From Clostridiales bacterium (GTDB lineage: Bacteria; Bacillota; Clostridia; Tissierellales; Sedimentibacteraceae), in NCBI GenBank assembly GCA_003483345.1, contig DMWH01000147.1:1-29082 (forward strand): a stretch of 29,082 nucleotides of DNA. Direction: 5' to 3'. Below are positions 1-24,522 of the stretch, in pieces (positions within the stretch are counted from its first letter, which is position 1; every line of letters begins with the position of its first letter). Below the pieces are notes generated by a model, which saw nothing but the letters and a program-made list of their open reading frames with translations, did no database searches and had not been told where the DNA came from. A program made the translations under genes and the position numbers.

Positions 1-2660
1 CGATTGGTACTTTTGCCGGTGTCTCCTTCATCTTTGTAAAATCCGACTGCATAATGGGATCTCATATTTATGCCCTTATTTTTTTTATTTAAGGCACGGT
101 CTTTAAATTTATTGAAAGTATCAACATTATAGCTTGATGTGTGCATCTTCATAGAAACCATCATTTCCGAATGAACAAGTTGTGATTTATAAGGAGAATC
201 ACTGTAGCCGTTTGATTCAGCAATCATATGAACAAATTCATCAAGCACCGACTGAAGGTTCCCATCTTTGCAATAATCAAGCACATTTTTCCAATAAGCA
301 TCGGTGTTCTTTTTGCTATAGCATAGGTCTACAGCTGCAATAGACTCTTGTCTGTTAAACATATTTATTATTAATTTTGAAATTTGTGTGGCATAAAGAC
401 TGTCTTGTCCGTTAGACCTGTAAGCACAAACAGCCGGAGAGGCAATTGCCATATTAACCAGTACATCTGTTAAATCCCTGGGCATCTTTCCTAAATGTAT
501 GTTTTTTAGCCTGTCATTGTATTCTCTTAACTTCATAAGGTGCGCTAAAAATCCTTTCTGTCCCCTATCCTTTTCTTCTTCGTCAGCATCGCCTGAAACC
601 AGGTCTGCACCATAATGAAACCATGTTGTAATATAACCTTGGCTGTCAAACAAGAAGGGAGCAAGGTAGTACCACCTTTCATCTTCCCTGTTTCCAAAAC
701 CTTGGTATCTTTCGAATTTTCTCAATAAATCATTAATTTTTCCGGCTAAATCCTTCTCAATATCATTTAAAGATTTGCCTTGATTCATACATTCTATGGG
801 ATTATATAAATTGGCAAGTGTTTTTGAAGGATACAATAAGCAAAACATGCTCATTGATTGGGGTATATTATTATCAAGATTAAATCTCAGCCTGGCTGTA
901 GGATACCTCTTATTATTAGGGGCAAAATAAGAGGTGTTTATTTTTAATTTCTTTTGCTCGACTATCTTCCCCACTGTTTTTCTTTCCGCCTCGTAAGATA
1001 TGAGGGTTGCAATCATTCTGGGCACCATTTCCCATGCGGAAAATACCAATATCTTTGAAAAGTTTTCGGCATTTTTAAAGGGACCGAGGGGTTTATAATA
1101 GGGAAGCGAAGGGGGTATCCAAAGAAGCATCTCGGCTTTATTTTCAAAAGCAGCCTCTTTAAGCCTTTCAAGACGGCCGTTGGCGGAACTGATTTCTCTA
1201 TAATTTCTGATTGCTCCTTCATTAATCCATAAATTATTACTTCGAGCAATTTTCAGTTTATCACGCTTATTTTTAAAGTACCTCTCTATTTGTCTCTTCA
1301 TTTTGTAATCCTTCATAAAGGACAATATATATGGAGATGATTTTACATAATCTACCGGTACATAGTTATTTGCTCCGATATTATTAAGAAGCTTGTCCGC
1401 TTCCACATATGACATAATATCTTTTTCGGTAACCGAAATAGGCAGCTTAGAGCTTTCATCGTTTATGAAGTCGCCCTTATCTATGGCAGCAATCCTTTCA
1501 GTCCTGCAGACCCCGTTGTACATGGCATTTTCAGCTTTTTTCTTCGCCTCAATTACAGAAATATAGTCAAGGTCAATTTCCCTTAATTGGACAGATAAGT
1601 TGCTCCATATTTCCTTAAATTCTTTTTGGCCTTTTTCGTCATCTATTAAAAAGTTCATTACCTGCATGAATTCTGAATAATGCTCATCAATTTGGTTTTC
1701 ATTTATTTCTTCCAAAGTTGAATATAATTTATAAGGGGTTGCAGATAAAAGCAAAACCCTTGTACCGTTTCCTTTTAAGAATTTCTTGACTAATATGCCT
1801 GTTTCACTTAAATCATCTGCAGATATTAAAAACTTAAAACGCTGAAACTCATCCATAATAACCAAATCAGGATTTAAAAACTCAACACTGATTTGTGCAA
1901 ACATCATTCTTAACTTATATATGAAGTTACGGGTGCCTGTTATCTTGTTTCCCCCATTTTTTCTGACCCTATTGCATAATGTCACCATTTCATCAAAAAT
2001 ATCTTTATCTTTAATGTATGATTCAACTAATTCAGTTACTTCCCTTATATAAGTTCCTGATGTTTTTTCGCAGCATAAGGCAACTCTGTTTTCATATACA
2101 GGTTTTGCCCATTTCCAACCAACAAAAGCACTGTCAATCAAGATAACTTCAAGCTCATTTAAATACTTCCTGAATATATCAATTCGTCTTAAGACAGCAA
2201 AAATTAATGCCCGCTCTTCCATACTGCCGGTGCCTCCGGTCATTGCAAATGAAGTAATGGGAGTAAGAGGTATAATCTGTACATATCTTGCCTTTATCTC
2301 ATCATCGCATTCCTGCTCGAATATTTTTAAATGCTGCATTGATAAACGGGTGTCTGAAACCCCATCTACAGTTATGTCTTCGCTAATCTTTAATTTGTTT
2401 ATATTTTGATTGGCAATGCTAAGGTTTGAGCAAATGTACGCCACCTTAAACAAGTCATCGCCGCCTTGGTGGTTAAGACTTGCGGTTTTTGCAATTATTC
2501 CTTTTGCAACCAAGGTTTTCCCAAGACCTACTTCATCTGCCACCAGCACCTTGTTTTGACCGCCCTTGTATAGTTCTATTACTCTGTCAACCGTTGCTCT
2601 TTGAAAGTCCTTCAACCCTTCCATTATTCTTTCTTCGGCTTTTGCTAAATCAATTTTCAT
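1..2660 (-). CDS. SF2 (SNF2/DEAD-like) helicase, C-terminus cut by window edge
   Basis: A large superfamily 2 helicase with about 886 codons visible; the frame stays open to position 1, so the 3' end is missing. Visible motifs are a Walker A (VADEVGLGKT) near residues 41-50, motif II as DEFQRF near 263, motif III (LLLSATPYKL) near 298, and the start of the second RecA domain (KILVFSAWE) near 530. The conserved block with motifs V and VI would lie beyond the window. The ATG overlaps the stop of the upstream PLD gene (ATGA), so the two are translationally coupled. It is the third gene of a DUF6361-PLD-helicase operon, which I infer to be anti-phage. The helicase would translocate on or remodel nucleic acid while the PLD protein supplies nuclease activity. 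The helicase assignment is secure from motifs; the defence role is inferred from partners. Confidence 0.9.
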   Translation of the reverse strand, partial: MKIDLAKAEERIMEGLKDFQRATVDRVIELYKGGQNKVLVADEVGLGKTLVAKGIIAKTASLNHQGGDDLFKVAYICSNLSIANQNINKLKISEDITVDGVSDTRLSMQHLKIFEQECDDEIKARYVQIIPLTPITSFAMTGGTGSMEERALIFAVLRRIDIFRKYLNELEVILIDSAFVGWKWAKPVYENRVALCCEKTSGTYIREVTELVESYIKDKDIFDEMVTLCNRVRKNGGNKITGTRNFIYKLRMMFAQISVEFLNPDLVIMDEFQRFKFLISADDLSETGILVKKFLKGNGTRVLLLSATPYKLYSTLEEINENQIDEHYSEFMQVMNFLIDDEKGQKEFKEIWSNLSVQLREIDLDYISVIEAKKKAENAMYNGVCRTERIAAIDKGDFINDESSKLPISVTEKDIMSYVEADKLLNNIGANNYVPVDYVKSSPYILSFMKDYKMKRQIERYFKNKRDKLKIARSNNLWINEGAIRNYREISSANGRLERLKEAAFENKAEMLLWIPPSLPYYKPLGPFKNAENFSKILVFSAWEMVPRMIATLISYEAERKTVGKIVEQKKLKINTSYFAPNNKRYPTARLRFNLDNNIPQSMSMFCLLYPSKTLANLYNPIECMNQGKSLNDIEKDLAGKINDLLRKFERYQGFGNREDERWYYLAPFLFDSQGYITTWFHYGADLVSGDADEEEKDRGQKGFLAHLMKLREYNDRLKNIHLGKMPRDLTDVLVNMAIASPAVCAYRSNGQDSLYATQISKLIINMFNRQESIAAVDLCYSKKNTDAYWKNVLDYCKDGNLQSVLDEFVHMIAESNGYSDSPYKSQLVHSEMMVSMKMHTSSYNVDTFNKFKDRALNKKNKGINMRSHYAVGFYKDEGDTGKSTN

Positions 2661-4432
2661 TTTTTTGCCACCACCCTTTCAAAGGCTTGGTATAATTCCT
2701 TAAATCCATCCGGAATTATATTATCTTCTGTTATGAGGTCCAATATTTTTTTAATATCGCTAAACTTTTGAGGTGAGCGGGCTGCCGCCCTAAGCATTTT
2801 CTCGTACAAGGCCGGGATAATCTCTCCGTTGCCAAATAAGAAACCATATTTCATATTGTTTTTGTTTTCCAAAAGAGATAATAAATAATCATCACCTAAA
2901 ACAAAAGAAATATATTGAATAAATCCGTTCTTATCTTTAATAATATCGTTAACTATGGAACTCTCTCTGTTTTCGGGCATGTTTTCTGTTTTTATTTTTA
3001 TAAGCCTCTGAACACTTTCTTCACCACTTATAGCTTTAATAATATAAAACTCGGAAAGTTGAAGCATCTTTAAATTTTCAAAGACAAGATGGTTTGATAA
3101 GGCCTCTTCTTTATCTGAGAGTAAGGGCTTAATAAATACATTGTCATTTTCTATCGGTCCTTCAAATTGAATATCAATAGAATAAACATCTCCTCCCCCG
3201 CTTATACAAGCATGAGACTTCAGCCTGCAGATATTTTTAATAATTTTTTCCAAATTATCTGCAGCAGTAAGCTCCGGTTCTTCATCATCTCTTATTTCTG
3301 CTTTTTCAAAGGGATTGTCCTTATCGCTGTCGCCGAATAAATCCTTCCTTAGCAAATCAACATTCAGGTATCTCCTTTTCCCATATAATTTAAACAAAAA
3401 TTCAACATTTCCGTAACAAGCATTATTGGACGCATTCAAGGAGCCGATAAAGAGCTCGCTGTTTGAATATTTTGTTTTCAAATACAGCTTAGCATGAATA
3501 TCCTGCTTTTGCTTTAATAAATCTTCTTCCTGCTCTCCTTCGCTTAAGGCCTCTTCCCCATCAACAATAATATCCTTCATGACATAAGTTTCAAAATTTG
3601 TAACCGATGAAGGTTTTAATTTCGCTATTTCGGATTTTCTCGTAATAAGTGTATTATTGTGATATGGATTTGATAATGCTATATCATTGAGCTTTTTAAT
3701 AATGCCATTACTTAAAAACGGAGAAATAATAAATAGCTCATTATAATTATTAAAAAGACCCGTTTCTTCAATGCTGTAATTTTCAATACCGACAGGATGG
3801 AAACTAAAATCCGTAAACTCTTTTTCCTTAAGCTCGAAATTTACATTCAATATTTCCTCTGCTAAAGTTAATAACTCTTTTCTCTTATTTCTATCGATGG
3901 AATCCCTTTTTGCAAGTTTAGTCAATGATTGCAGAAAATCATGCAACGGTTTTGTTTTGCCGTTTTCCTTATCATATTTGCCCTCAATTTCCACAGCCAC
4001 ATCCCAGCTTCTGTCAAAGGTTAAATTTCTGCTGAGCACCAGGCATCTATACAAGGCTTCCCCCTCTTCATTTTCATATTTGACGATCCAAAATTTTGGA
4101 TGAAATGATTTCTTGTTTTTCATTACAACTTCAACAACCATTTTCTCTAAAAGTATGTGCAGAGCATTAGAATTAGACGGTACTTTTATTTGTCCCCCTT
4201 CACAAAATACTAATATCTTTTCAGCTGTTCTTTGCAAGGCTTCAAGCAAATATATGGGGTTGTCCTTCAATTCATTATCAATACTCTCAGAAAGACCCAA
4301 TGCAAGGCATACTCCTATCAAAGCATCAAGGTCAAGAGAATAAGTTGTCCCAACTGCAAAGGTAGTTTCATAACCAAAGGGAGGCGTGAGCATTTCGCTG
4401 TAATCAAGTCTGTCGCTTGCCGGCTTAAGCAT
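2657..4432 (-). CDS. Phospholipase D-like (two HxK motifs) putative nuclease
   Basis: A protein of about 591 residues with two PLD-type half-sites. The first is HPKFW near 111-115 followed by SRNLTFDRSWD near 134; the second is HAKLY near 313-317 followed by GSLNASNNA near 330. Paired HxK...(G)SxN motifs form the active site of PLD-superfamily phosphodiesterases, several of which are DNases in restriction or defence systems. I chose the ATG at 4432, which overlaps the DUF6361 stop by 8 bases and has AGGTGA five bases upstream. The GTG three codons earlier is itself part of that ribosome site. Its own stop overlaps the helicase start. About 240 C-terminal residues show nothing I recognise. It is the likely effector nuclease of the three-gene operon, but the substrate is unknown. 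Confidence 0.85.
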   Translation of the reverse strand: MLKPASDRLDYSEMLTPPFGYETTFAVGTTYSLDLDALIGVCLALGLSESIDNELKDNPIYLLEALQRTAEKILVFCEGGQIKVPSNSNALHILLEKMVVEVVMKNKKSFHPKFWIVKYENEEGEALYRCLVLSRNLTFDRSWDVAVEIEGKYDKENGKTKPLHDFLQSLTKLAKRDSIDRNKRKELLTLAEEILNVNFELKEKEFTDFSFHPVGIENYSIEETGLFNNYNELFIISPFLSNGIIKKLNDIALSNPYHNNTLITRKSEIAKLKPSSVTNFETYVMKDIIVDGEEALSEGEQEEDLLKQKQDIHAKLYLKTKYSNSELFIGSLNASNNACYGNVEFLFKLYGKRRYLNVDLLRKDLFGDSDKDNPFEKAEIRDDEEPELTAADNLEKIIKNICRLKSHACISGGGDVYSIDIQFEGPIENDNVFIKPLLSDKEEALSNHLVFENLKMLQLSEFYIIKAISGEESVQRLIKIKTENMPENRESSIVNDIIKDKNGFIQYISFVLGDDYLLSLLENKNNMKYGFLFGNGEIIPALYEKMLRAAARSPQKFSDIKKILDLITEDNIIPDGFKELYQAFERVVAKK

Positions 4433-5621
4433 CTTTATCACCTAACCCTTCATAAATGTCTCTTATTATATTTTGAGCATTTCTCAACCTGTACTCAAGC
4501 TTTCCTATACCTGTCCAACCCTTATATTCAAATTCATTATTGCGTAACTTCGAACGTTTTTCCCCCTTAATGCTTACTTCTCGCCTAATAACCGCTTCAT
4601 CAAGCCTGTCAATATCATCCTCAAGCATGGCTTCCTTGCAATCTTTAAGGAATCTTTTGAGCTTAATATTATTTATACTGAGCCTGCTAAATATATCATC
4701 AAGGTCTATATCCGCATATTTCTTCATTTGAGAATGCCACCATTCCCATTCAGCACTTAAAGCATCATCTTCTCCTTTGGATAACATAACATTATATCTT
4801 AAATGTGCCCCGTATATGAAATCAGCAAACTTTTTCGCCGGAATATAGTCTTTTTTTATACTATCCGGCAATATGTTTATCATTCCTTCTATCTCATCAA
4901 AACTATTAAACAATAAAAAATCAGTATAATTATTTTTCAAAACATATCCCAATAATGAATCAGAACATGTTAATAATATCTGATTTTTCAAAAACTCAGC
5001 TTCTATATAAGTAAGCCTGATAGATAAATCTTCTTTCCACTTATCCGAATAATCAGGCAGCTTCCAAAAACCGTTGAATTCACCTGATACAGCATCTGTA
5101 TCATCTCCATCAGTTTCATCATCCTTAGACTTTAGGCTGACTTGGTCTTTAAGCTTTTGCTGCTTGTCCTTAAATAAACAAGAAAGCTTTGCATAGTTAT
5201 TTAAAGACATCTTGCCGCCTGTAAAGATGCCATATGTCCTGATACCGTTCCAGTAAATATCTGACGGCTTTCGCTTTAATTTTTTACCTGATCGCTCACC
5301 GATAACACCATACTCTCCGCTCTTCTTAAGTACATCAATTAAATTTAATTCCTCTTCATAGAGACTCTTTATCAACCTGTCAGCATTCATGCCTCTTTTT
5401 CGTTCCAAATCATTTAATATGTATGGCACCAGCAAAAAATATTTAGCCCTGGTCTGTATGGTAGAAGTACCCGGAAAAAATATATTCGCAAACCCGTCAC
5501 GAATTACTCCAATACCTAATTCATCAACTGCTTCAGGTTCTGAAAGCAGATTTATAACCCTGATTACTTTGTTTCTTTGTTCTTTGGAAAAATCAATCCA
5601 ACCAAGTTGTAGTACGTTCAT
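4425..5621 (-). CDS. DUF6361 family protein
   Basis: A 398-residue protein whose start (LGWIDFSKEQRNKV, then FANIFFPGTSTIQTRAKYFL) matches what I know as DUF6361, a family of unknown biochemical function that I recall occurring with PLD-like and helicase genes. There is no signal peptide, membrane segment or nucleotide-binding motif. It looks mostly helical, with an acidic linker near residues 165-175 (KDDETDGDDTD) and a basic stretch near 345-355. The ATG is preceded by AGGAGA about seven bases upstream. It is the first gene of the tightly overlapping operon with PLD and helicase genes, so a recognition or scaffold subunit of that complex is a reasonable inference. No enzymatic role can be read from the sequence. 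Confidence 0.8.
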   Translation of the reverse strand: MNVLQLGWIDFSKEQRNKVIRVINLLSEPEAVDELGIGVIRDGFANIFFPGTSTIQTRAKYFLLVPYILNDLERKRGMNADRLIKSLYEEELNLIDVLKKSGEYGVIGERSGKKLKRKPSDIYWNGIRTYGIFTGGKMSLNNYAKLSCLFKDKQQKLKDQVSLKSKDDETDGDDTDAVSGEFNGFWKLPDYSDKWKEDLSIRLTYIEAEFLKNQILLTCSDSLLGYVLKNNYTDFLLFNSFDEIEGMINILPDSIKKDYIPAKKFADFIYGAHLRYNVMLSKGEDDALSAEWEWWHSQMKKYADIDLDDIFSRLSINNIKLKRFLKDCKEAMLEDDIDRLDEAVIRREVSIKGEKRSKLRNNEFEYKGWTGIGKLEYRLRNAQNIIRDIYEGLGDKDA

Positions 5622-5681: not shown

Positions 5682-6041
5682 TCAGCTTGAAGGTTTTTTC
5701 TCCCACTCATTTTCCTTGAATCCAACTAAAACAACATCCTCTCCTACAAGTATAGGTCTTTTAACAAGCATGCCATCTGTTGATAATAGCTTTATTTGTT
5801 CTTCATCAGACATATGTGCTAATTTTTCTTTCAGATTTAAATCTTTATATATTTTCCCGCTTGTATTGAAGAAACTCTTTAATAGATAACCGCTTCTTTC
5901 GAACCATTCTTTCAGTTCATCTTCATTAGGATTCTCTTCCTTTATAGGTCTTTCTACAAAATCAATATTATTTTCCGTTAACCAATCCTTGACCTTTTTG
6001 CAGGTGCTTCATCTTGAATAACAAATAAATGTATATTTCAT
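5682..6041 (-). CDS. ArsC/Spx-family thioredoxin-fold protein, probable selenoprotein (in-frame UGA = Sec)
   Basis: A 119-codon gene interrupted only by TGA at codon 11 (6009-6011). Reading that TGA as selenocysteine gives FICYSR-U-STCKK, which aligns the UGA with the first, catalytic cysteine of the CxxC site in the ArsC/Spx/YffB family. The rest is collinear with the family: a KRP segment preceding a strand near residue 98, a mid-region FFNTSGKIYKDLNL, and the usual length of about 115-120. A strong AGGAGG sits six bases before the ATG, and no in-frame ATG, GTG or TTG follows soon after the TGA, so a restart is unlikely. Cys-to-Sec exchange at a redox site is the classic selenoprotein signature. 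The alternative is a TGC/TGT-to-TGA nonsense mutation, but nothing else in the gene is damaged. Probable role: thiol reductase, arsenate reductase-like. It is not obviously part of the defence genes around it. Confidence 0.75.
6009..6011 (-). other. Candidate selenocysteine codon (UGA)
   Basis: In-frame TGA at codon 11 of the ArsC-like gene, replacing the nucleophilic cysteine of a CxxC motif (UxxC). Bacterial SECIS elements lie just downstream of the UGA. Here I see only short hairpin options: ACCU pairing with AGGU around loop GCAAAA, or CCUG pairing with C(A)AGG around a loop containing GGU. Neither is strong by eye, so the RNA structure is unproven. Confidence 0.6.
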
Positions 6042-6060
6042 TTTGTCCTCCTAAGTTTCA

Positions 6061-7726: not shown

Positions 7727-10432
7727 TCAAATACTATACATAGTCTTTAACAAAGCTACATCTTTTGTAATATTTTTTAACTCAAAACTATTTAAAACTT
7801 TTTTTTCAGTTTCAGGAGTCCAATATATTTTCAAATCTTCCTTTGCTCTTGTAATGGCTGTATAGAAAATGTTATGAGTAATACGTTCTTCGACTTCGTT
7901 TGTAATGACAATTTTGACAGAGTTATATTCTAATCCTTGTGCTTTATGTATAGATATTGCATAGGAAATTTGGAAAGGAACGATAGTATCTAATGAATCA
8001 TCATCCTCATCTGTGCTTTTATATTTATTAACCCAAAAGCTAATAATCGAATTGCCATTTTTAGAATTACCTACAAGATCAAAATCATAGTTCTTGGCTT
8101 GCAGCTCATTAATTGCAATATCCAACTCTATATCAAATCTAATTATTTTATCCTGTTTTTCAATATCTATAATTTTCCCTTTCATATTGTTATATATAAG
8201 AGGAGCAAACCTTTCTGATTCATTGAATAAAATTGGATCATTAATTTTATAAATGTTTATTCCCCATTCTACCGCATTCTGTTTATTATTACCTTGTAAA
8301 AAACGATTGATATTATTTATTCCATAAAGTCCATCATAATTGAGGCAAAGAATTATTTCATTATCTTTTGAATAATCAAAAATTGAATCATCCAAATGAA
8401 CAGTATAATTGTTTTTTACCATTGGTTCCAAAATAGCATCATCTAATTTACGAACTCTATCCCAAACTGAAAGCAATTCTTTGTTTGTGCTTCTATAAGG
8501 TTTCGTTAGCTCAAACACAGATTTTCCCGGTACAAATGAACGCGCAATGCTAAACCAATTCCCAAATAAAATAGATTCTATCTGAAATATATCACCCACC
8601 AAAACTAATAGCGTAAACTTAGCCTTTTCAAGGACTTTTCTCATATCCTTATTACTAACAGTACTACATTCGTCAATTATTAATAAATCACATTCAGTAT
8701 GTCCATTATATTTAGTAAGAAATTTTTTTATAGTATTAAATTCGCAATTAGCAGCTGTAACTTTTCTTCTAAGGTTATTCACCGCTGGATGTGTATTAGC
8801 TAAATATATTTTATTCTCATTATTAAAAAAGTTTGAAATATGGTCAATTAATGTTGATTTTCCAGTACCAGCTGAACCATAAATAAGTGCAACACGAGAT
8901 TTGCCAAACATTTGTTTTAATGCTTCAATCTTTTCTTGACTATCTATTTTATGGGCTGTGGTTTGTAACCATGATATAACTGAATTAGTATAACCTCCTA
9001 TTCCTGAGGTTGATAATTCTTTTAGTTTTTTTATGATCTCAGCACTGTCTTCAACATATCCTTGCATATATATATGACCATTAAACTCTTTTAAATATCG
9101 TTCTGTGTGCTTATAATATACATGCGAATTATATTTATTAATAAGCTCATCAATATTGTCAAATCCAACAATATCACTCTTGGGTGTAAATAATTTACTA
9201 TTAATTTCAGCATTATTTTTAATAACCTTTGCTAAAAACTCATGCTCTCTTTCTTTAGAATCAATACATTCAAATAAATCAAAATTCCTTGGATTATGCC
9301 GAATAAGTGACGTTGCAAAAGGCATTTTATCAAAAGGCATACACCCATACTTTAAATATAGATTTGAAAGCTTTTCACAAGGTTCATTATTACGCTGTAA
9401 TTTTATAATTTTATTATTTAACTTGTGTAATAAGTATTTAATTATATTACTGCCAGATGCGTTGCTTCTTACTAAATTCTTACATTTATCAAGTATCATA
9501 AAAAAATGAGAAGCAGTCGTTTCTTGTAGAATCTTGTTTTTTGCCCATGCATAATAACGTTCCGATGAATTTACTAAATCAACTATACTCATTCTAGTTT
9601 CAGTTAAGAACCGCATAATACCCCGATATTCAACGCTACTAGTATTTATCTTGGAATGACTTCCAAAAATATCCGCAAAGTTGTTAAGTTCACAAGGTCT
9701 AATTGATACCTCCCAGCGATCAATAATTTGAATAGGCATTTTCTTACCTAAAATATTGATATAATCATTTCGTACAGAAAGTCTAACGGCATAATTATCA
9801 AAAATCTCTAAATTAGTAAAGGCAATCACTCTATCGAATTTACTTGTTTTATCGCTAGCTACGGTATAAGTAACTTCATAATAGATTTTATGCTCTATAA
9901 AGAACGGTTTGATTTTTTTAATATAATATCTGTCATCATATGTACTTTTATAGGAGTTGGGTCTTATAGTGTTTATCCTAATTGCTATTTTTTCATAATA
10001 CTCTATAAGATTAGAGTCAAGATTTAGCGGAAATTCATCAATGTTTTCAAGAATATCAATATTATATGTATCTTTAAGGAAAATTTTTATTTTAAGCAAA
10101 TATTCATAATATTTAAGCATTAATCTTTCTGAACCACCTTCGTCGATTGTGTAGTGAGAAACAGATTTTTGCAACATTGCATGGAATTTGCTTAGAAAAC
10201 GTAATCTACCTTGGGTTTTAATAAATTCCAAAGCTTCCTTCTTCTTATTATAGTTATTAGGATCAATGTCCACTCCTTTTGCATATACTTTTTCGGCAAT
10301 ATATTCAACTAAGTTACGAAGTTGTGCCAAAATATTTTGAGATAAAAGACCTCTTTCTGAATCATCAAACTTGTCAATATTTTTGCATATAATCTTACTG
10401 GTATCTAATATTGCTTTGTCTATTTTTAACAT
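7727..10432 (-). CDS. SF1 (RecD/UvrD-type) DNA helicase with large uncharacterised N-terminal region
   Basis: A 901-residue protein. The C-terminal half is a superfamily 1 helicase: Walker A YGSAGTGKST near 516-525, motif II LLIIDECST near 583, motif III LVGDIFQIE near 610, motif V SIHKAQGLEYNSVKI near 830 and motif VI FYTAITRAKEDLKIYW near 860. The order and the C-terminal UvrD_C_2-like block fit RecD-like 5'-3' helicases. The first 500 residues are not recognisable. A helical start with QLRNLVEYIAEK recalls HEPN domains but lacks the expected histidine. The ATG has AGGAGT seven bases upstream. It lies downstream of the PIN nuclease gene, separated by 152 bases holding two inverted repeats. 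It is probably a defence helicase partnered with the PIN or HNH nuclease, but that is inference. Confidence 0.85.
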   Translation of the reverse strand: MLKIDKAILDTSKIICKNIDKFDDSERGLLSQNILAQLRNLVEYIAEKVYAKGVDIDPNNYNKKKEALEFIKTQGRLRFLSKFHAMLQKSVSHYTIDEGGSERLMLKYYEYLLKIKIFLKDTYNIDILENIDEFPLNLDSNLIEYYEKIAIRINTIRPNSYKSTYDDRYYIKKIKPFFIEHKIYYEVTYTVASDKTSKFDRVIAFTNLEIFDNYAVRLSVRNDYINILGKKMPIQIIDRWEVSIRPCELNNFADIFGSHSKINTSSVEYRGIMRFLTETRMSIVDLVNSSERYYAWAKNKILQETTASHFFMILDKCKNLVRSNASGSNIIKYLLHKLNNKIIKLQRNNEPCEKLSNLYLKYGCMPFDKMPFATSLIRHNPRNFDLFECIDSKEREHEFLAKVIKNNAEINSKLFTPKSDIVGFDNIDELINKYNSHVYYKHTERYLKEFNGHIYMQGYVEDSAEIIKKLKELSTSGIGGYTNSVISWLQTTAHKIDSQEKIEALKQMFGKSRVALIYGSAGTGKSTLIDHISNFFNNENKIYLANTHPAVNNLRRKVTAANCEFNTIKKFLTKYNGHTECDLLIIDECSTVSNKDMRKVLEKAKFTLLVLVGDIFQIESILFGNWFSIARSFVPGKSVFELTKPYRSTNKELLSVWDRVRKLDDAILEPMVKNNYTVHLDDSIFDYSKDNEIILCLNYDGLYGINNINRFLQGNNKQNAVEWGINIYKINDPILFNESERFAPLIYNNMKGKIIDIEKQDKIIRFDIELDIAINELQAKNYDFDLVGNSKNGNSIISFWVNKYKSTDEDDDSLDTIVPFQISYAISIHKAQGLEYNSVKIVITNEVEERITHNIFYTAITRAKEDLKIYWTPETEKKVLNSFELKNITKDVALLKTMYSI

Positions 10433-10485
10433 AGGTAATACTCCTAAAATTTATTTTTTGTTAAAATCATATATTTCAACCTTTG

Positions 10486-10514
10486 TTTTAAGAGATTTTA
10501 TATATCCCTTAAAA
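10486..10514 (-). repeat. Inverted repeat upstream of the SF1 helicase gene
   Basis: TTTTAAGGGAT and ATCTCTTAAAA flank a 7-base AT loop: an 11-base-pair stem with one G-U pair in the minus-strand RNA. No U-tract follows it, so it does not look like an intrinsic terminator. An operator or leader structure for the helicase gene 54 bases downstream is possible. Confidence 0.4.
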
Positions 10515-10521
10515 TATTCAG

Positions 10522-10539
10522 TTTTTTGCTAACAAAAAA
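10522..10539 (-). terminator. Short T/A-rich hairpin after the PIN gene, possible weak terminator
   Basis: TTTTTTG and CAAAAAA flank a 4-base loop about 45 bases past the PIN stop. The stem is almost all A-T and has no separate U-run after it, so terminator function is doubtful. It is listed because, with the adjacent inverted repeat, it marks a break between the PIN and SF1 helicase genes. Confidence 0.25.
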
Positions 10540-10584
10540 TAATACTTATTATACCTATCTCGATCTCAAAATCCTATAGTATCT

Positions 10585-11652
10585 CTAAAATGGTATTTCG
10601 TCATCTTCGTCAACTTGTAATGTTTCTGCGACAAAGTTATTGTTTAATATATCACAAACCGTGTTAATAAACGGTTCCATATATTCAGGATATTTAGTTT
10701 TTATTTCTTCATATAACTCATACGCAGATTCTACAGACTCCATTAGTATAGGATTGATATCTTCAATTTCCCCATTAAAGGTAAATATAGAAGATGCGCT
10801 TACCTGTTTATCGAAAATATGGTTTTCTAAATATTCTTTCAATAAGTCAAAAATAACCTTTACATATTCGGGTTCAAATTTAGCATTAGTTGTAAAGGTT
10901 CTTTCCCAATGTTCTTCTCCCCAATAATTTTCAACGTAAACCCCACATATTGAATTAATTGTTTCATCTATCCTATCACGCATAGAATAGATATCAATAT
11001 TCGATAAATTCCTTACAGACTCCTTTTCTCCAGCTAAAATAATATGTTCTGTTTCTCCAAGTAAAATTTTATAGTAATTATTATCTTTAATTTCAATAGT
11101 ATTTCCTGTTATATCAAAAAACTCCTTCTTTAATTTATCGGTGTATTTTAAGAATCCTTTATCATTTGTGAGGAAAATTACATTGATATCTTTGCTTGAA
11201 TTATTGAAAAACTTCATTATAGAAAGCCAAATGAGTGTATCCTTGAATCCCTTGTCACTAGCATTTTCACTATCAGAGAATGGAGGAACTTTTTCATACA
11301 CACGTTCTAAAACTTCTTGCAATATATTTTCGCTTGAGTTTAATGATATAATTCTATCATCAAATAGATTCTGATAGCTTTCAAAAGTTCGTTTTTTCTC
11401 ATTATCAATTATTTTATCAAAATCATACCTTAATGTAATATTAGCATAAGATGAGTATTCTTTTATAAATGCTTCTATTTTTTCATGTTTCGACTTAAAT
11501 TCCATATATTTTTGTGAAATTCTTTCGTTTATTGAAACTTCCGTTATATATAAATCATAATTTTCAGATAGTTTTTCATGTATGCCAAGAAGATCTGTCT
11601 TATGGTCAATAATAAAGTTTGTATCGAATACGATTGTCGTTTTTCCAGACAT
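10585..11652 (-). CDS. PIN-domain (DUF4935-type) ribonuclease-like protein
   Basis: A 355-residue protein. The start TTIVFDTNFIID carries the first acidic residue of a PIN (FEN/5'-nuclease-like) site; ITEVSINE near 35-42 and SDKGFKDTLIWLS near 130-142 supply further acids, and FLTNDKGFL closes the fold near 165. PIN domains are metal-dependent RNases, and DUF4935 proteins are often found in defence islands. The C-terminal half is acidic with no recognised domain. I chose the ATG at 11652 because GGGGAG sits eight bases upstream; the GTG three codons earlier is only part of that ribosome region. The gene starts 47 bases after the PLD/SNF2 helicase stop, so it may be the last gene of that operon and act as an RNA-cleaving effector. 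Confidence 0.8.
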   Translation of the reverse strand: MSGKTTIVFDTNFIIDHKTDLLGIHEKLSENYDLYITEVSINERISQKYMEFKSKHEKIEAFIKEYSSYANITLRYDFDKIIDNEKKRTFESYQNLFDDRIISLNSSENILQEVLERVYEKVPPFSDSENASDKGFKDTLIWLSIMKFFNNSSKDINVIFLTNDKGFLKYTDKLKKEFFDITGNTIEIKDNNYYKILLGETEHIILAGEKESVRNLSNIDIYSMRDRIDETINSICGVYVENYWGEEHWERTFTTNAKFEPEYVKVIFDLLKEYLENHIFDKQVSASSIFTFNGEIEDINPILMESVESAYELYEEIKTKYPEYMEPFINTVCDILNNNFVAETLQVDEDDEIPF

Positions 11653-11699
11653 AATTATCACTCCCCTTTATCGATATTTTAAAAGATATACCTCTTTTT

Positions 11700-14414
11700 T
11701 TACCATCCCTTTTCCAAATATCTTCTTTTCTCTTTATTGTCAAGAACCTTTGAGCAGCTTTCCCAATCTATATGTGCTACACCCCTATTATATCTATTTT
11801 CAAATGGATGCTTTTCAGGAACTTCATCAATTAATTGCAGAGCTTTTTCTTCTTCACCTAAAGCAATATTAATCCAAACATCTTCTAAAACATCAGGAAT
11901 TTGTCCGAAAATATCCGATATATTTTCAAGCCTTTTAGACAGTCTGCTGTGGACTTTATCCTCTATTGAATCCTTATACCTCATGTTATAAATATAGATA
12001 CTGTCATATTGTTGTCCAATTCTTTGGATCCTACCCTTTCTTTGCTCTAACTTTGTTGGGTTCCATGGTAAGTCTATATTAATTAAAGAGCCTAATGTTT
12101 GTAAGTTTAGCCCTTCGCTTGCAGCATCTGTCCCAACTAATATTCTTATTTCCCTTGTTCTAACCATTTCTTTGATAGTATCCTTATCCTTATTAATAAA
12201 CTTTCCATCTATAAAGATTCCTGACCTGTTTCCTCCTGCATAAAGCCCTATTGTTTCTTCATTAAATTCTTTAGTTAAATTATCTGCAATCCACCTTGCA
12301 GTATCATAATATTGGGAAAAAATAATAGTACCTCTTTCAATCCATTTTTCACGTTTTAGTAATTCTACTGTTTTTTCATATTTAGGATCTACTGCATCTG
12401 TTGATTCTAATGCTCTTACATATTTTCTTAATAAAGTGGTTTCTTCTTCCGTCAAATTCTTTATCTCGGATGATTCATCCGTATCCTTGTCATATTTATA
12501 GTCTTCAAAATCTTCGTCTACAATTGCTTCGTCAATATAAGTATTCCATTCATTCAACATTTTTGTACCTGTATTTTTGCCAGCTTCTATGGAACTTCCT
12601 ATTCTCCTCAGTAATAAAGTTTTTAAAAATCCTGCACCCTTATTTCTCCTACCAAGCAATTTGCAAAATTCTTCTGCATAATTATAGGCTTCCTTCAAGT
12701 AAGTACTTAACACCAAAGAATCTTCCTCGTTTTCACCAAATAATTCTACTTTAATCTTTTGTAAATATGGTTCATTAGTGTCAGGATTAATTGTTTCCTC
12801 TAAATATTTTCTTTCTCTTCTAATAACATGCCTGATATACGGATTATGATTTTCATAAAAGCCTCTTGATATTAAATTACCGACCCTCTGTTGTTCTGAT
12901 TGAGTTAATTCCGGAAATGATTTTTGATATACAAATTCATTATCTTTCATATTTGACTTTAACCGCATGGAAGCGAAAAACGGATTTTCATTTTTGGGTG
13001 GGAAAGGGTTTCTAATCCATTCCCAATTTTCTTTATCAAAAAACTCCATGGATTCCTTACCCATAATCAAGTTAAGCCCTTTGGAAATCATGTTTCTTTT
13101 TCTCCAATAGGAAGCCGGGCTTCCAAGTACGCTATCATTTTTCTGTGATAAGATATTCATTAAATCCCAAAGCTCAATAGCATGCAATTGTATAGGAGTA
13201 GCTGTAGCCAAAAGCATGCTTTTAGTTTTTAGAGAAATTTCTAATAAAAACTCATATAAATGATTAGTGTCAGGACTATGATGTTCTTTACCTTCTCCTA
13301 TATTCCTTCGTCTGGCTCTGTGACATTCATCAACTATAATACATTCATACTCTAATTCTAATAGCCTTGATACTAAAGGAGACTTGGCTACAATAAGACC
13401 CTGAGAAATAATTCCTACCTTTCTCGGGCATTGCTTTATACTCTTACCTATGTGCTCCATACCATTCTCATCAACCCAAGATTTACCGTTCCATACAGCC
13501 GAGGGCATATCTAAAAGCTCGTTCATCTCTTCTTGCCATTGCGTTGTCAGTGTTTTCGGAACTATAATAAGAATAGGTTTATCTCCATATAAGGTCATAA
13601 GTTCAGCAGATACGGCTAATTGTATAGTCTTACCTAAACCAACCTGGTCTGCCAATATATATCTTGCCCCATAGGACATTTTATGGTCATTAAATGCTTT
13701 ATCGATAAAATATTTTTGATGTTCCCATAGACCAAATTGCTGCCTATATACAGGAGATTCAATCACAATCGGCGAAGCTCCGGTGTCGCTTTTCTTCCAG
13801 TCTTCAACCCTATCGATAGTTTTCCTTTCTGATATTCTTTTGATATCATCAATTATGAAATCGGATAAAGGTATTGCCGAACTATCATTCCAAAGAGCAT
13901 CAAATTCCTCCTGCACCCAATCAACAGCTTCTTTGGAATCGTCTTCCCAGACTAATTCATAGTTTAAATTCCAAGCTGAAAGCGACTCATTGGTGCTTCC
14001 TAAAAATGATGTTTTTTTACCATTACTTAATGTTATAACTCCAGCTTTACCGTGAATTAAACCAAATTTGTCACTTGGAAGTACTCGAACCTCCATTTTT
14101 TTCGACGATAGTAGGTCATATAGTTTTTTAAACCTAATAGACGAATTTTTAAGATCTTCCGGTTTAAAATCGCACCACTCTTTCCTCAAACTGTTTGCAG
14201 CAGATTTTGCAGTCGCTATATCCCTTGAATCTAAATCAGAATTACAAATAATCCTTACTTTCCCTTCCATAGACTCAATTTCTTCACCGGCAACTTCTAA
14301 TATAGATGAACTGAAATATCCTGCTATCCTATCATAAGATTTAGCATTCTTGAGTTTTTTATTAAGAAGAGAGTCAGACAAAGACTCTCTCCGAGATGAA
14401 TATCTGTTTATCAA
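11700..14414 (-). CDS. PLD nuclease-SNF2 helicase fusion, anti-phage type
   Basis: A 904-residue fusion. Residues 1-180 form a PLD-like domain with one half-site (LIHGKAGVI at 119-127, then FLGSTNES at 137-144), suggesting that a dimer builds the nuclease centre. Residues 225-850 form a SNF2-family translocase: Walker A LADQVGLGKT (254-263), DECHR (362-366), ATATP (403-407), GTDAASEGLNLQ near 761 and QRKGRIQRIGQ near 788. The start is TTG: GGGGGA overlaps the DUF1156 stop and lies six bases before it, and there is no nearby ATG. It is the last gene of the DUF499-DUF3780-DUF1156 operon and most likely the restricting component of a helicase-methylase-ATPase system; the role is known for the family only from defence-island association. 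Confidence 0.88.
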   Translation of the reverse strand: MINRYSSRRESLSDSLLNKKLKNAKSYDRIAGYFSSSILEVAGEEIESMEGKVRIICNSDLDSRDIATAKSAANSLRKEWCDFKPEDLKNSSIRFKKLYDLLSSKKMEVRVLPSDKFGLIHGKAGVITLSNGKKTSFLGSTNESLSAWNLNYELVWEDDSKEAVDWVQEEFDALWNDSSAIPLSDFIIDDIKRISERKTIDRVEDWKKSDTGASPIVIESPVYRQQFGLWEHQKYFIDKAFNDHKMSYGARYILADQVGLGKTIQLAVSAELMTLYGDKPILIIVPKTLTTQWQEEMNELLDMPSAVWNGKSWVDENGMEHIGKSIKQCPRKVGIISQGLIVAKSPLVSRLLELEYECIIVDECHRARRRNIGEGKEHHSPDTNHLYEFLLEISLKTKSMLLATATPIQLHAIELWDLMNILSQKNDSVLGSPASYWRKRNMISKGLNLIMGKESMEFFDKENWEWIRNPFPPKNENPFFASMRLKSNMKDNEFVYQKSFPELTQSEQQRVGNLISRGFYENHNPYIRHVIRRERKYLEETINPDTNEPYLQKIKVELFGENEEDSLVLSTYLKEAYNYAEEFCKLLGRRNKGAGFLKTLLLRRIGSSIEAGKNTGTKMLNEWNTYIDEAIVDEDFEDYKYDKDTDESSEIKNLTEEETTLLRKYVRALESTDAVDPKYEKTVELLKREKWIERGTIIFSQYYDTARWIADNLTKEFNEETIGLYAGGNRSGIFIDGKFINKDKDTIKEMVRTREIRILVGTDAASEGLNLQTLGSLINIDLPWNPTKLEQRKGRIQRIGQQYDSIYIYNMRYKDSIEDKVHSRLSKRLENISDIFGQIPDVLEDVWINIALGEEEKALQLIDEVPEKHPFENRYNRGVAHIDWESCSKVLDNKEKRRYLEKGW

Positions 14415-14425
14415 AAAAATTCCCC

Positions 14426-17344
14426 CTATACACCATCATTTCTCAAAGCTTCTCTCAATACTTTTGCAAAGTATCCCGTTTGTTTCCAATGCTCCATATG
14501 GCCTATACTCTCTACTCTTGATATAAAGTTTAATAATTCAATCATTATGTTTTTCTTTTTCCAGTATTCATTGTTTTCTTGATATATTGATTTTAGATAT
14601 GCTACTCCGGCAGAAGATTTGTTTTCATTTATGCAATCATTTATAGCTACTAAAAGATGTCTTGCTAAAGTACTTCCAAAACCATCTCCACCAATATGTC
14701 TCCGTTTAAATTCATCCGCTGTTTTAAATCGAGTTTTATTAGCGGTTGTAGAATAAAACATATCTGTATAGTCCGTTACACCGAATCCTCTTGCCAGCTC
14801 CTGATAATCCCCTATTTTATAGATATTATCCATTTCTAATTCCAAGCCTCTGATGAAAAATCTTTCTTCCTTTGAAAGTTCTCTCCAAATAAAAGTATCA
14901 AAGCCTTCAGGTATCAGATAATTATATGCGATATCCTGTGCTTTTGAAATTAGCTCTACTATAGGATTAATTTCTGCACTGTCCCTTCCCTGAGCTAACC
15001 AATATGGAATGTAAATACCTGCTATTTCCTTATAAGAAGTAATGGCTTTTAAGGCTGCTGCATAAGAAGCCAATATGAAATCAGCATCATTAAAGTCCGG
15101 GTCATCTTTGTCGTTTATATCTTTCATTGAATCTATTGTGTTCTTAACTTCATAGGTTATTTCATCGTATAAGTCATCTTTATAAATTTTTTCTTGGCTA
15201 GTTTGTTTTTTAAGGGTTAGCAATACTGTTCCCGAGACGTAATTGCCTGATTTCAGCCCTCCATTGGTTGTTTCTGTAGAAATTGTCCAAGCTGATACCA
15301 CTCTTAAACCTGATGACCACAATATCATTGCAAGTTCTGCCCATACTTTTACATCTTGATGGGTAAACATAACTACCTGAACACCATTATCAGGCATGTG
15401 TTTATTTAAATTGTTGTATATTTCTATCATGCTGTTATTAAAACTTTCCCCGGTACCCTTTACAGCCAAAACCCTTTTGGAATCCGTATACCATTCCGGA
15501 AATGCCCTTTTTAACAGAGTTTTGTTCCATGCTAAAAAGAACTCTGTAAGCTCATGATAATTAACGGCGTCAGCATAAGGCGGGTCAGTTATCCATAAGT
15601 CGCATGTTTCAGTATTATTTCTAGCATCTTTTGTTTCTATTATGTTTTCAATATCCAAATAACAGGAATTAATATTCATTAACCAGCTATTTATATACAT
15701 GTTAGTGGCTCTTGCACCATAATTGTATAATGTATTTAATGCTTGAGTAGTAAACGTATTTTGAGTTTTTTCAGTCCCACTTCCCGCATTCCATATACAT
15801 AATTTTGAATTCCAATCACAGCATTTATTTAATCCCAATATTCCTATAGCTTTCTCCATCTGTCCGTCTGCCAATTGACTGCTTATTTTAGCAAATAGTC
15901 CATTTATAAGTAATTGTCTGGGATTAAATAATTGATGCCAAAACTGCCAGCCTCTTGTTCTAATTGGTTCTGACGTTTTATCTCCCTCTTCAATTTTAGC
16001 TAATGGTATATACCCTTTATCCTGCCAATGTTTAAATCTTTCTTTTAATAGTTTAATTACCTTTTCTTCTCTTTGTAGATCTTCCTTTGTCGGTGCGGTA
16101 TAGTATCTTTTGGTCTTTTTATTCCCTTTTTCATCTGTGTATTCTTTTACATATCTTATACAATAAAGTCTTTCTTGAAATACGTCAGTGTCTCTCGGTA
16201 TAAATTCATCTTTTTCCCAAAATCTGAGACCACTTATAGTTTCACCATTTTCACCCTGTCTGTCACCTCTTATTGAAGTTATAGGTGTTTGCAATTCACA
16301 ATGGGGACAATACATATAATTGTCTCTTACGGTAATGCTTTTATCGGATTCCTTAAACTTTTCTTTATTTGCACCTTGTACTATATCTATATTAAATCCA
16401 TCAGTACCATTATCTATAAGAATGGCAACTGTCTTAGTTCCTTTCCCTATTACCCATGACGGTGCCAAAGGAACCTTGTATCCGCATTCCGGACATGTTG
16501 TTTCCATACAATATAAATATGAGTCTGCCCGATGTCCCTCCTCATTATGCTCGATACCCCACTCGGTAATAAGTTTGTCAACTTCATCATAAACATCTTT
16601 TTGAAACTCTCTTAATTTCTCTATTTCTTCGTCATCAGCACCGGCTATGTTTAATGCGGCCCAAGTTAATATTGAAGCCACTGGATTTAAATCTGAAGCA
16701 AAAACATCCGCTCCCAGCCTTGCAGCTTCAAAGGGAATACTTCCTCCTCCCGAAAACACATCTCCTATCTTAGGTCTGTGTCCGAATCTTTTTATACCTA
16801 ACTCTTCAATTAAGGATTGGAAAGAATCAGCATGGGTTTCCAAATGAGCATTTATTTCACACCAAACATTTTCAGGTAAGTTTTCTATATGCTCCGGTCT
16901 GTTGCAATACTTTAATTTGTCATCATATGATAAACCATTGAATACATGTATTTGAATTTTTTCTTTCTCTTCCTTTGTAAGTCCTCTTTTATATACGGGC
17001 ATACCTCCATCATTTAATTCCATGTATTCTTTTATATAGTCTTCATCAGCTAATTCATATAATTCTTTTTGAGTTAAGTTTTTAAACTTTCTTAAAATCA
17101 AGCCATCCTCATCCATGGTCATGAGTTTTAAAAAAATTTCCCTGTCCTTTTCTAAATTATCCGATACAGGCAATAAAATACCAAGGATTGCAGCCCTTAC
17201 CAATACCAGTGGTTTTCGTCCCCACCATTTTCCTAATCCGGTTAATGTTTGTCCTAAGTTTGACATTCTTTCCTTGTAGCTTTCCTTAGACACTTTGGAT
17301 ACCGGAAACTGCACTTCTATAAAAGATCTGCTGAAATCTAACAA
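14426..17344 (-). CDS. DUF1156 DNA methyltransferase (N6-adenine type), anti-phage associated
   Basis: A 972-residue protein opening with the DUF1156 signature (SFIEVQFPVSKVSKESYKER, then TLTGLGKWWGRKPL). A SAM-binding motif I (GDVFSGGGSIPFEAARLG) lies near 190-208 with the acidic FASDLNP strand after it, and the catalytic motif IV DPPYADAVNYHE is near 585. DPPY indicates amino-methylation, probably N6-adenine. Two CPxC pairs (CPEC near 283, CPHC near 346) look like an inserted zinc ribbon. The start is TTG with GGAAGGTG upstream, 15 bases after the DUF3780 stop. It lies in an operon with a DUF499 ATPase and a PLD/SNF2 helicase, so it presumably marks self DNA or modifies target DNA. The target sequence cannot be read from the gene. 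Confidence 0.9.
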   Translation of the reverse strand: MLDFSRSFIEVQFPVSKVSKESYKERMSNLGQTLTGLGKWWGRKPLVLVRAAILGILLPVSDNLEKDREIFLKLMTMDEDGLILRKFKNLTQKELYELADEDYIKEYMELNDGGMPVYKRGLTKEEKEKIQIHVFNGLSYDDKLKYCNRPEHIENLPENVWCEINAHLETHADSFQSLIEELGIKRFGHRPKIGDVFSGGGSIPFEAARLGADVFASDLNPVASILTWAALNIAGADDEEIEKLREFQKDVYDEVDKLITEWGIEHNEEGHRADSYLYCMETTCPECGYKVPLAPSWVIGKGTKTVAILIDNGTDGFNIDIVQGANKEKFKESDKSITVRDNYMYCPHCELQTPITSIRGDRQGENGETISGLRFWEKDEFIPRDTDVFQERLYCIRYVKEYTDEKGNKKTKRYYTAPTKEDLQREEKVIKLLKERFKHWQDKGYIPLAKIEEGDKTSEPIRTRGWQFWHQLFNPRQLLINGLFAKISSQLADGQMEKAIGILGLNKCCDWNSKLCIWNAGSGTEKTQNTFTTQALNTLYNYGARATNMYINSWLMNINSCYLDIENIIETKDARNNTETCDLWITDPPYADAVNYHELTEFFLAWNKTLLKRAFPEWYTDSKRVLAVKGTGESFNNSMIEIYNNLNKHMPDNGVQVVMFTHQDVKVWAELAMILWSSGLRVVSAWTISTETTNGGLKSGNYVSGTVLLTLKKQTSQEKIYKDDLYDEITYEVKNTIDSMKDINDKDDPDFNDADFILASYAAALKAITSYKEIAGIYIPYWLAQGRDSAEINPIVELISKAQDIAYNYLIPEGFDTFIWRELSKEERFFIRGLELEMDNIYKIGDYQELARGFGVTDYTDMFYSTTANKTRFKTADEFKRRHIGGDGFGSTLARHLLVAINDCINENKSSAGVAYLKSIYQENNEYWKKKNIMIELLNFISRVESIGHMEHWKQTGYFAKVLREALRNDGV

Positions 17345-17359
17345 TTTTTCACCTTCCTG

Positions 17360-17902
17360 TTATAAGTCAAATATTCGCATTTGATTTGTTTTTTTATCAT
17401 CTATCGGGTTTTCTGTTATTGCATACCTTATAGCTTTGCGCCAACCCCTTTTATCGTCGGCATGGCCTGTGGTTGCATTGGTCATAGTAAACAGCCACCA
17501 TCGTTCTTCTCTGCTGAACCCTAACCAATTTCTTATAGCTGTTGGGATTAATGTAGGGTCCGAATCTTCAATTGCCCAAAGGAGCAATATCATCTCTTTG
17601 CCTAACAATCTGTCTACAGGAGTATCTCCTGTTTTAAATTTTCCTACGGTTATATTATTGTTTTTAAGTGTTTTATTCAATTCATTTTCAACTGCATCTT
17701 TTACTAAATCCCATTTATGTCTATCTAATTCTACTTTAATGTTTTCATATTCTAATTCTGTTTTTTGAGGCTCATTTTCATCCCATTGAAACCTCTCATA
17801 CACCAATACTTTCTGCTCCTTGCTTCTTGCTATTCTCACTAAAAAGTGATGTTTTGTTTCCTCCGGTATATACCCAAATCCAAGACCCTGGATTCTTGCC
17901 AT
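17360..17902 (-). CDS. DUF3780 domain protein, anti-phage associated
   Basis: A 180-residue protein matching DUF3780 along its length: the start RIQGLGFGYIPEETKHHFLV and the tryptophan-rich C-terminal part (LLLWAIEDSDPTLIPTAIRNW, then FSREERWWLFTMTNATTG). The function is unknown; it always seems to travel with DUF499 and DUF1156 genes, so it is probably a structural subunit or adaptor of that complex. The ATG is preceded by AGGAGGG, which overlaps the DUF499 stop (TAG), giving tight translational coupling across an 11-base gap. There is no signal peptide or membrane segment, so it should be cytoplasmic. Confidence 0.85.
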   Translation of the reverse strand: MARIQGLGFGYIPEETKHHFLVRIARSKEQKVLVYERFQWDENEPQKTELEYENIKVELDRHKWDLVKDAVENELNKTLKNNNITVGKFKTGDTPVDRLLGKEMILLLWAIEDSDPTLIPTAIRNWLGFSREERWWLFTMTNATTGHADDKRGWRKAIRYAITENPIDDKKTNQMRIFDL

Positions 17903-17913
17903 AGTAAACCCTC

Positions 17914-20900: not shown

Positions 20901-21018
20901 AAAAACTTTCCCCATTGATGGAGCCATCTAATAGATTTGATAGGTCAAGGGTATCATCTCTCTTTGATTCATCGAATACGCTTTCTCTCGGTTTACAAAC
21001 CTCATATAATGTTTTCAA
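17914..21018 (-). CDS. DUF499 ATPase, anti-phage associated
   Basis: A 1034-residue ATPase. Walker A MGGGKTHNM lies near 75-83 and Walker B LILLDELPPYL near 165-175, and the DUF499 hallmark QAMGGGKTH is intact. The region after residue 750 differs from the ATPase core, and residues of about 845-905 (KATADNVKILYTTNGSNPKE, then GDFIIPAGTKFIQAIA) resemble the chitobiase/hexosaminidase C-terminal beta-sandwich, an Ig-like binding module. The start is TTG at 21018: GGAGG stands seven bases upstream and no closer ATG exists. It is the first gene of the four-gene operon with its own extended -10 promoter. It is probably the energy-using sensor or loader of the methylase/helicase system. Confidence 0.88.
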   Translation of the reverse strand: MKTLYEVCKPRESVFDESKRDDTLDLSNLLDGSINGESFFEETYITDGMELLFDTAFKRFEGKAASGIIKLTQAMGGGKTHNMLALGVLAKNKNIRTSVLNGKYANITDEINVVAYTGRETYLKFGIWGEIAEQLGKKEYFNDYYSPLMAPGQTAWINLLQNDTPTLILLDELPPYLQNATTIPVGTGTLADITTAALANLFNAVNKAELHNVCIVVSDLQATYEEGSQLLRRSFKELENEIGRSAINIEPVGANTDDLYNILRTRLFEKVGNQEDVQKIIEGYRKSINEGRQMGYTNYTAEAIAKGILASYPFHPSVRDLFARFKENPGFQQTRGYIRLTRLMVKDLYSGKIEAKNKYLLNAYDINLNNAEMVTTVKGIKDSIINAISHDIADGGNSVAEILDSERGTKDIQEISKLILVSSLGNVSNAIIGLSVQEIFGYMVEPGRDITGLKQGLEDYSTKAWYLYKDKANRLYFKDIKNVNAELIDLVNTYSYDFGKQAVKKILEEKFKPEQGDCYQNVEVFPSIDEIDLSRDKITLVLTEPNKDLSGLSRDLRKFFDDISYKNRVMFLTGQRNSMDNLVIKGKEHSAIKSIINNLKFEEKLPETDPQYKQALDLYEKINLEFISSLRESFVTLYYPKRSGLVSDDITMEFEENNYNLEEQIKKLLIDKMKFDTDINSKEFRDKFEDRIFTQRQMNWNAIKERAATTMSWSWHHPNALEDLKADMLRRGEWAETGGYIDKEPPAPETSLTVREIYEDENTGEVTLKIIPQYGDEIYYEIGQEATKSSLKIKDIHNFKTKELKLSFLCVDSKGNSPTGKPIEWTRNVKVKYKPYDKDGKQFMELKATADNVKILYTTNGSNPKESGGVYEGDFIIPAGTKFIQAIAVNEKLGIYSETIQIEVKERKFEIDRDKELVIIEPIMYNNTSATFKGLEELEKFKASISGVILGVSSNNNPHANEFIELTMGDGIRIDNPKIVLDELNKILKNFFDGKEFEVNLTINKIIFNAGRYFEQWVSDKKERVEDYKGKIRQ

Positions 21019-24515: not shown

Positions 24516-24522
24516 ATGGCTA

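What the first reader, a model, noticed from the sequence alone, without database searches (positions are those of the whole stretch)
5682..6041. ArsC/Spx-family gene with UGA exactly at the catalytic cysteine: probable selenoprotein
An otherwise intact 119-codon frame has one stop, TGA at codon 11, in the position of the first Cys of the CxxC site (reads SR-U-STCKK). It has a strong ribosome site, no second start after the TGA, and full family length. Standard gene callers would split or drop it. It also implies a Sec-decoding host.
Basis: partly seen in the sequence, partly recalled or inferred. Interest (0 to 1): 0.8.

Follow-up and report, generated by a model that had tools for sequence, protein, structure and literature searches.

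The report
Selenocysteine-containing ArsC-like redox protein
This is a small thioredoxin-fold gene whose catalytic cysteine codon has become UGA and is very probably read as selenocysteine; the kind is already known from other bacteria, but here it belongs to a group of relatives in which the site appears to have switched between selenocysteine and cysteine several times.

Summary
Codon 11 of 119 is TGA, at the first position of the CxxC site. Of 120 listed homologues, 74 have Cys there and 46 have W, the way table-4 gene calls write TGA. In 112 parsed DNA loci the codon is TGC 50, TGT 44, TGA 18, TGG 0. The host has selA, selB, tRNA-Sec and selD; its GrdA, GrdB and SelD genes also carry in-frame TGA. 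A hairpin with the published bacterial SECIS geometry and at least -2 kcal/mol lies 18-21 nt after the UGA in 18 of 19 UGA genes, 4 of 17 same-order Cys genes and 3 of 77 other Cys genes. The exception is the window's own copy: geometry kept, but three of six pairs are G-U and it is not stable. That copy lies among defence genes; its paralogue L001 keeps a stable hairpin. UxxC ArsC-like selenoproteins were predicted before (PMC2398784, PMC9312934). New here: a group that fails NCBI's selenoprotein models in the proteins tested, and repeated Sec/Cys switching.

The parts
5682..6041 (-). ArsC-like (TIGR01617) gene, 119 codons plus TGA stop, with in-frame TGA at codon 11
   Evidence: full-length homologues
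6009..6011 (-). in-frame UGA, predicted Sec codon, first position of UxxC
   Evidence: Cys or W/TGA only at this column in what was listed or parsed
6000..6002 (-). TGC codon 14, second Cys position of UxxC (resolving role inferred)
   Evidence: C14 invariant in the 15-protein alignment A1
6047..6052 (-). AGGAGG ribosome-binding site, 5 nt before the ATG
   Evidence: sequence
5980..5994 (-). SECIS-position hairpin GGTCAA-GGA-TTGGTT: six pairs, three of them G-U, apical loop GGA 20 nt after the UGA
   Evidence: same place as in the 18 other UGA genes; predicted unstable in this copy (stem +2.7 kcal/mol)
5682..5684 (-). TGA used as the true stop

Best explanation
The gene encodes a selenoprotein of the ArsC/TIGR01617 family. 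The in-frame UGA is read as Sec by SelB, tRNA-Sec and a hairpin just downstream, giving a thioredoxin-fold protein with a U-S-T-C active site. Inferred: Sec11 attacks an oxidised substrate and Cys14 resolves the intermediate, as in YffB/ArsC-type thiol oxidoreductases, rather than the protein binding RNA polymerase like Spx. The window copy looks like a second copy placed among defence genes; its weak hairpin suggests lower Sec insertion than in the paralogue L001. Shown here: conserved frame, Cys/UGA exchange, Sec genes in the host, a hairpin shared by the UGA genes, few amino-acid changes after the UGA. Not shown: Sec in the protein, substrate, activity.
For: Cys or W/TGA, nothing else, at the site in 120 listed homologues and 112 parsed loci. 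selA, selB, tRNA-Sec and TGA-bearing selD in the genome; GrdA and GrdB also with in-frame TGA. In the 120-genome set SelB is over cut-off in 13 of 14 genomes with the UGA gene against 19 of 32 with the Cys gene. Hairpin of SECIS geometry at spacing 18-21 and -2 kcal/mol or better: 18 of 19 UGA, 4 of 17 same-order Cys, 3 of 77 other Cys genes. dN/dS 0.05-0.12 after the UGA in the 7 of 9 pairs with a usable ratio. TIGR01617 103 bits, cut-off 75. Leu53 stands where Spx has Gly52 (alignment; role of Gly52 from passages of PMC2801614).
Against: The window copy's hairpin is predicted unstable. No pair of the family hairpin shows changes on both sides, and shuffles score as high. The tree-corrected test of hairpin against UGA has 6 pairs, about 3 informative, p 0.25. 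Without an energy limit a hairpin with G early in its loop is also seen in 7 of 17 and 40 of 77 Cys genes, and with a looser place but MFE <= -3.5 in 10 of the 77. The published model asks MFE <= -7.5 kcal/mol (PMC13188914, passage); in my constrained fold of up to 22 nt on each side 7 of 19 UGA genes reach it and the window copy (-0.8) does not. No Rfam match reaches its threshold.
Confidence: 0.86

Rival explanations
1. The family is a selenoprotein, but the window copy is a decaying duplicate: its SECIS has lost stability and the UGA now mostly stops translation.
For: Only 1 of 19 UGA genes fails the hairpin test, and it is this one. It bears Val at position 17, where Ala is nearly invariant in the 15-protein alignment, and that codon is part of the stem. 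A second UGA copy with a stable hairpin exists (L001), with one neighbour gene shared with G005 and G015 and another with G015.
Against: Pair geometry and the GGA loop are kept; the rest of the frame is intact, with dN/dS 0.05 against L001, though dS there is near saturation. GrdA of the same genome has a similarly weak predicted hairpin (+0.5).
Confidence: 0.12
2. UGA means Trp in this organism (code 4-like).
For: Database gene calls print W at this place in 46 of 120 listed homologues.
Against: Of 112 parsed loci 94 have a Cys codon there, 18 TGA and none TGG; of 17 window genes checked 4, this one included, end in TGA, and 16 of the 17 use TGG inside; the host has tRNA-Sec, selA and selB.
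Confidence: 0.01
3. Sequencing or assembly error turned a Cys codon into TGA.
For: The genome is a fragmented assembly of 300 contigs.
Against: The same TGA in 18 of 249 genomes searched, one of a single contig and one of two; the database entry that equals the window's protein, P0002, stands for 6 contigs.
Confidence: 0.01

Closest known systems
Arsenate reductase 2, cd03032, UxxC (Global Ocean Sampling selenoproteome, PMC2398784)
   Same: ArsC-type protein with Sec at the first position of UxxC; 42 in its table (passage seen)
   Different: Marine samples; I had no sequences of it to compare, so kinship of the subfamilies is not tested
NF041106 ArsC family (seleno)protein, UxxC (listed as arsenate reductase-like in PMC9312934 and PMC13188914, passages)
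   Same: ArsC family, Sec at the first position of UxxC
   Different: This protein scores 24 bits against a cut-off of 85, so it lies outside that model
Arsenate reductase 1, UxxS (PMC1088965, PMC2398784, passages)
   Same: Sec replaces the first catalytic Cys of an ArsC-family protein
   Different: UxxS, not UxxC; the arsenate reductase model TIGR00014 gives 29 bits against 106
Spx / MgsR regulators
   Same: TIGR01617, named after them, is over its cut-off; CxxC at the same place
   Different: Spx models far under cut-off (58 against 123); Gly52 of Spx is Leu53 here
PDB 3gkx, putative ArsC family related protein
   Same: Closest solved structure by sequence, E 1.4e-38 over residues 1-115
   Different: CxxC instead of UxxC

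Membership tests
Bacterial selenoprotein | in-frame UGA aligned with a conserved Cys of homologues | tested here: met
Bacterial selenoprotein | host with SelA, SelB, SelC, SelD | tested here: met
Bacterial selenoprotein | bSECIS: upper stem of at least 4 bp, loop 3-9 nt with G in the first two, 16-37 nt after UGA, MFE <= -7.5 kcal/mol | tested here: inconclusive
   geometry met in 19 of 19 UGA genes; stem at -2 kcal/mol or better in 18 of 19, not in the window copy; -7.5 reached by 7 of 19 in a constrained wider fold (model from PMC13188914, passage)
Bacterial selenoprotein | Sec present in the protein | not testable with these tools
   needs mass spectrometry or 75Se
TIGR01617 arsC_related | score over the curated cut-off | tested here: met
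   103.2 bits against 75.05
TIGR00014 arsenate reductase (glutaredoxin) | score over the curated cut-off | tested here: not met
   29.3 against 106.05
NF041106 ArsC_rel_Se_1 | score over the curated cut-off | tested here: not met
   24.2 against 85; P0028 and P0060, two other W-type members, score 23.3 and 23.0, and P0005 and P0013 have no hit to it at E <= 1e-4
Spx regulator | score over the Spx models | tested here: not met
   57.8 against 123, 53.8 against 159, 41.8 against 152
Spx regulator | Gly52, RNA polymerase alpha-CTD contact | tested here: not met
   Leu53 at that place in the alignment; need for Gly52 from passages of PMC2801614

The most novel reading that the evidence does not exclude
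In this order (probably Tissierellales) the ArsC-like protein is an unlisted selenoprotein subfamily that keeps switching between Sec and Cys. Several switches are Sec-to-Cys losses that left a relic SECIS behind, and the window's extra copy is caught part-way through SECIS decay. [quoted passage not shown]
Probability: 0.4. Interest if true: 0.55.

Novelty: new member of a known kind. Interest (0 to 1): 0.42.

Why it matters
Ordinary gene calling stops at the UGA, and the NCBIfam selenoprotein models did not reach cut-off on any of the six W/UGA-type proteins tried (two of the six are the window gene itself). The close Sec/Cys sister pairs in the tree (L124/L029, L020/L018 and, less surely, L014/L013) are a natural test of what Sec buys in one protein and how a SECIS decays after a switch.

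Tried and rejected
Rfam scan of 5900-6060: four hits, all far below gathering score. Covariation count: 97.9% of cells paired, no double-sided changes, shuffles equal, so covariation gives no support beyond pairing itself. Tree-corrected pairs: about 3 the same way, 0 opposite, 3 without difference, median p 0.25. Longer folds of the window copy give other structures: an ACCU/AGGU hairpin of -3.8 kcal/mol whose loop starts only 7 nt after the UGA, outside the published 16-37 range, and mixed folds. Single-gene fold z-scores against synonymous resampling are mostly modest (mean -1.5 for UGA genes, near 0 for Cys genes). Shared neighbours as a hint of function: within the 1.5 kb or less held on each side, no neighbour recurs in more than 3 of 36 loci, leaving aside overlapping frames. 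Paper searches: searches listed no paper; some searches listed the selenoproteome papers cited plus four unrelated to this gene by title; one search listed two Dehalobacter papers that I did not open. That is not proof that nothing on this gene is in print.

Dropped rows: of 118 loci tested, 6 did not parse (L010, L035, L037, L038, L069, L079); L010 and L035 were put back, the other four stayed out; L049 was dropped as the same gene as L030. That gives 19 UGA, 17 same-order Cys and 77 other Cys genes. One search shows that the 77 hold two copies of same-order genes (L065 = L031, L054 = L123) and one inner copy (L097 = L112), so 74 are distinct; none of these copies is among the 3 with the hairpin. 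The tree used every fourth of the 77 (20). One search was a failed first parse (wrong pattern). The lists for the Fisher test were typed from the tables; p is 0.035, or 0.009 if the SelB fragments of G093 and G019 count as present; neither is corrected for kinship.

Full report
What is there. On the minus strand, 6041-5682 encodes MKYTFICYSR-U-STCKKVKDWL... of 119 residues with one internal TGA at codon 11 (6011-6009) and a TGA stop. AGGAGG stands 5 nt before the ATG, and no start codon follows the TGA in frame until codon 77. The protein matches Pfam ArsC (63 bits, cut-off 24) and NCBIfam TIGR01617 (103 bits, cut-off 75).

Homologues. The search scored 8000 candidates, 7995 passed, and the best 120 are listed. 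Of these 120, 74 have Cys and 46 have W at the site, none another residue. P0002, listed without a source as the tool does for the window's own protein, equals the window gene with W at both this TGA and the stop TGA and runs on past the stop, so it is a gene call with TGA read as Trp. That the other 45 W also stand for TGA is inferred. In DNA the case is direct: of 112 parsed loci 50 have TGC, 44 TGT, 18 TGA and none TGG. In the order, 118 of 249 genomes have the gene at E <= 1e-25, and 18 of them (19 genes) carry a single TGA, in all 19 at this codon.

Host. The genome (2.26 Mb, 300 contigs, 82% complete) has selA and selB side by side, with tRNA-Sec 0.8 kb further on after one other frame, and selD with its own in-frame TGA. 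GrdA has a TGA inside its frame, and GrdB reads TST-U-GTCTRC; both are established selenoproteins (a 1995 grdAB paper cited in PMC9312934, seen, and recall). The nearest named SelA proteins are from Sedimentibacter or 'Tissierellia bacterium', while the best hit (97%) is unnamed; so genus Sedimentibacter and order Tissierellales are inferences. In the 120-genome set SelB is over its cut-off in 13 of 14 genomes with the UGA gene (the 14th, G093, has a fragment) and in 19 of 32 with the Cys gene. Two same-genus genomes without SelB over cut-off, G016 and G020, have Cys codons.

Hairpin. A 2026 review gives the bacterial SECIS model: loop 3-9 nt with G in the first two places, upper stem 4-16 bp, 16-37 nt from the UGA, MFE <= -7.5 kcal/mol (PMC13188914, passage read). 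Tested for geometry with a stem of -2 kcal/mol or better at spacing 18-21, it is found in 18 of 19 UGA genes, 4 of 17 Cys genes of the order and 3 of 77 other Cys genes (74 of the 77 are distinct). L022 reaches it with a different stem. A plain fold of bases 15-39 agrees: UGA against same-order Cys genes p = 0.0002, not corrected for kinship. Against this: the published MFE limit is reached by 7 of 19 UGA genes in my constrained wider fold; there is no double-sided covariation; the kinship-corrected test is too small to decide (p 0.25); and without an energy limit 7 of 17 and 40 of 77 Cys genes also fold some hairpin with G early in the loop.

The window copy. It is the one exception. It has the six-pair geometry and a GGA loop 20 nt after the UGA, but three pairs are G-U and the stem alone is +2.7 kcal/mol. 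GrdA of the same genome is also weak (+0.5), while SelD (-9.7) and GrdB (-5.6) are strong, so weakness does not exclude decoding. The paralogue L001 (77 of 107 residues identical after the UGA) has a stable hairpin and shares one neighbour gene with G005 and G015 and another with G015, so it looks like the vertical copy. The window copy lies between ZacA/ZacB and other defence genes, so it looks like an added copy.

Evolution. On a 56-protein tree built without the Sec column, Sec/Cys needs at least 9 changes, 6 of them forced by well supported branches. The four same-order Cys genes that keep the hairpin (L013, L018, L019, L029) sit next to or near UGA genes: L029 with L124 and L018 with L020 are well supported pairs, L013 with L014 is weak, L019 is only near. 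[quoted passage not shown] Direction is not settled here, as the tree is unrooted.

Function. Spx and arsenate reductase models fail their cut-offs, and Spx's Gly52 is Leu here. The likeliest work is a selenol/thiol oxidoreductase with Sec11 attacking and Cys14 resolving. This is inference from the family; no substrate is known.

Novelty. ArsC-type UxxC selenoproteins are in print: 'Arsenate reductase 2, cd03032, UxxC, 42' (PMC2398784), 'Arsenate reductase-like protein, UxxC' (PMC9312934, PMC13188914), and two ArsC-like selenoproteins in 2006 (PMC1794560). I read passages of these papers, not whole texts. So this is a new member of a known kind, in a group that NF041106 does not cover (24 bits against 85).

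Noticed in passing
window 2657-5621: ZacA (4425-5621) and ZacB (2657-4441) defence genes lie directly 3' of the UGA gene (PADLOC).
   Followed up: partly
window 7727-21018: Further defence-type genes: PDC-S53 helicase (1327 bits), PLD helicase, DUF1156 methyltransferase, DUF3780, DUF499.
   Followed up: partly
window 22026-25485: Subtilase (S8) next to an AAA ATPase gene; possibly also a defence module, but only Pfam was run.
   Followed up: no
L001 1492-1812, minus strand, with the codons before the TGA up to 1845: Second ArsC-like gene of the same genome, also with TGA at the catalytic Cys, with a stable SECIS-like hairpin.
   Followed up: yes
L013, L018, L019, L029: Cys versions that keep the SECIS-like hairpin and sit next to or near UGA genes in the tree: possible relics of Sec-to-Cys change.
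   Followed up: partly
L006 6510-10736, L007, L126, L127: selA-selB, then a frame that looks by eye like a response regulator, then tRNA-Sec; selD, GrdB and GrdA with in-frame TGA.
   Followed up: partly
P0002-P0121: Database proteins called with TGA as Trp show W for UGA; W exchanging with Cys at one column may be a cheap marker for missed selenoproteins.
   Followed up: no
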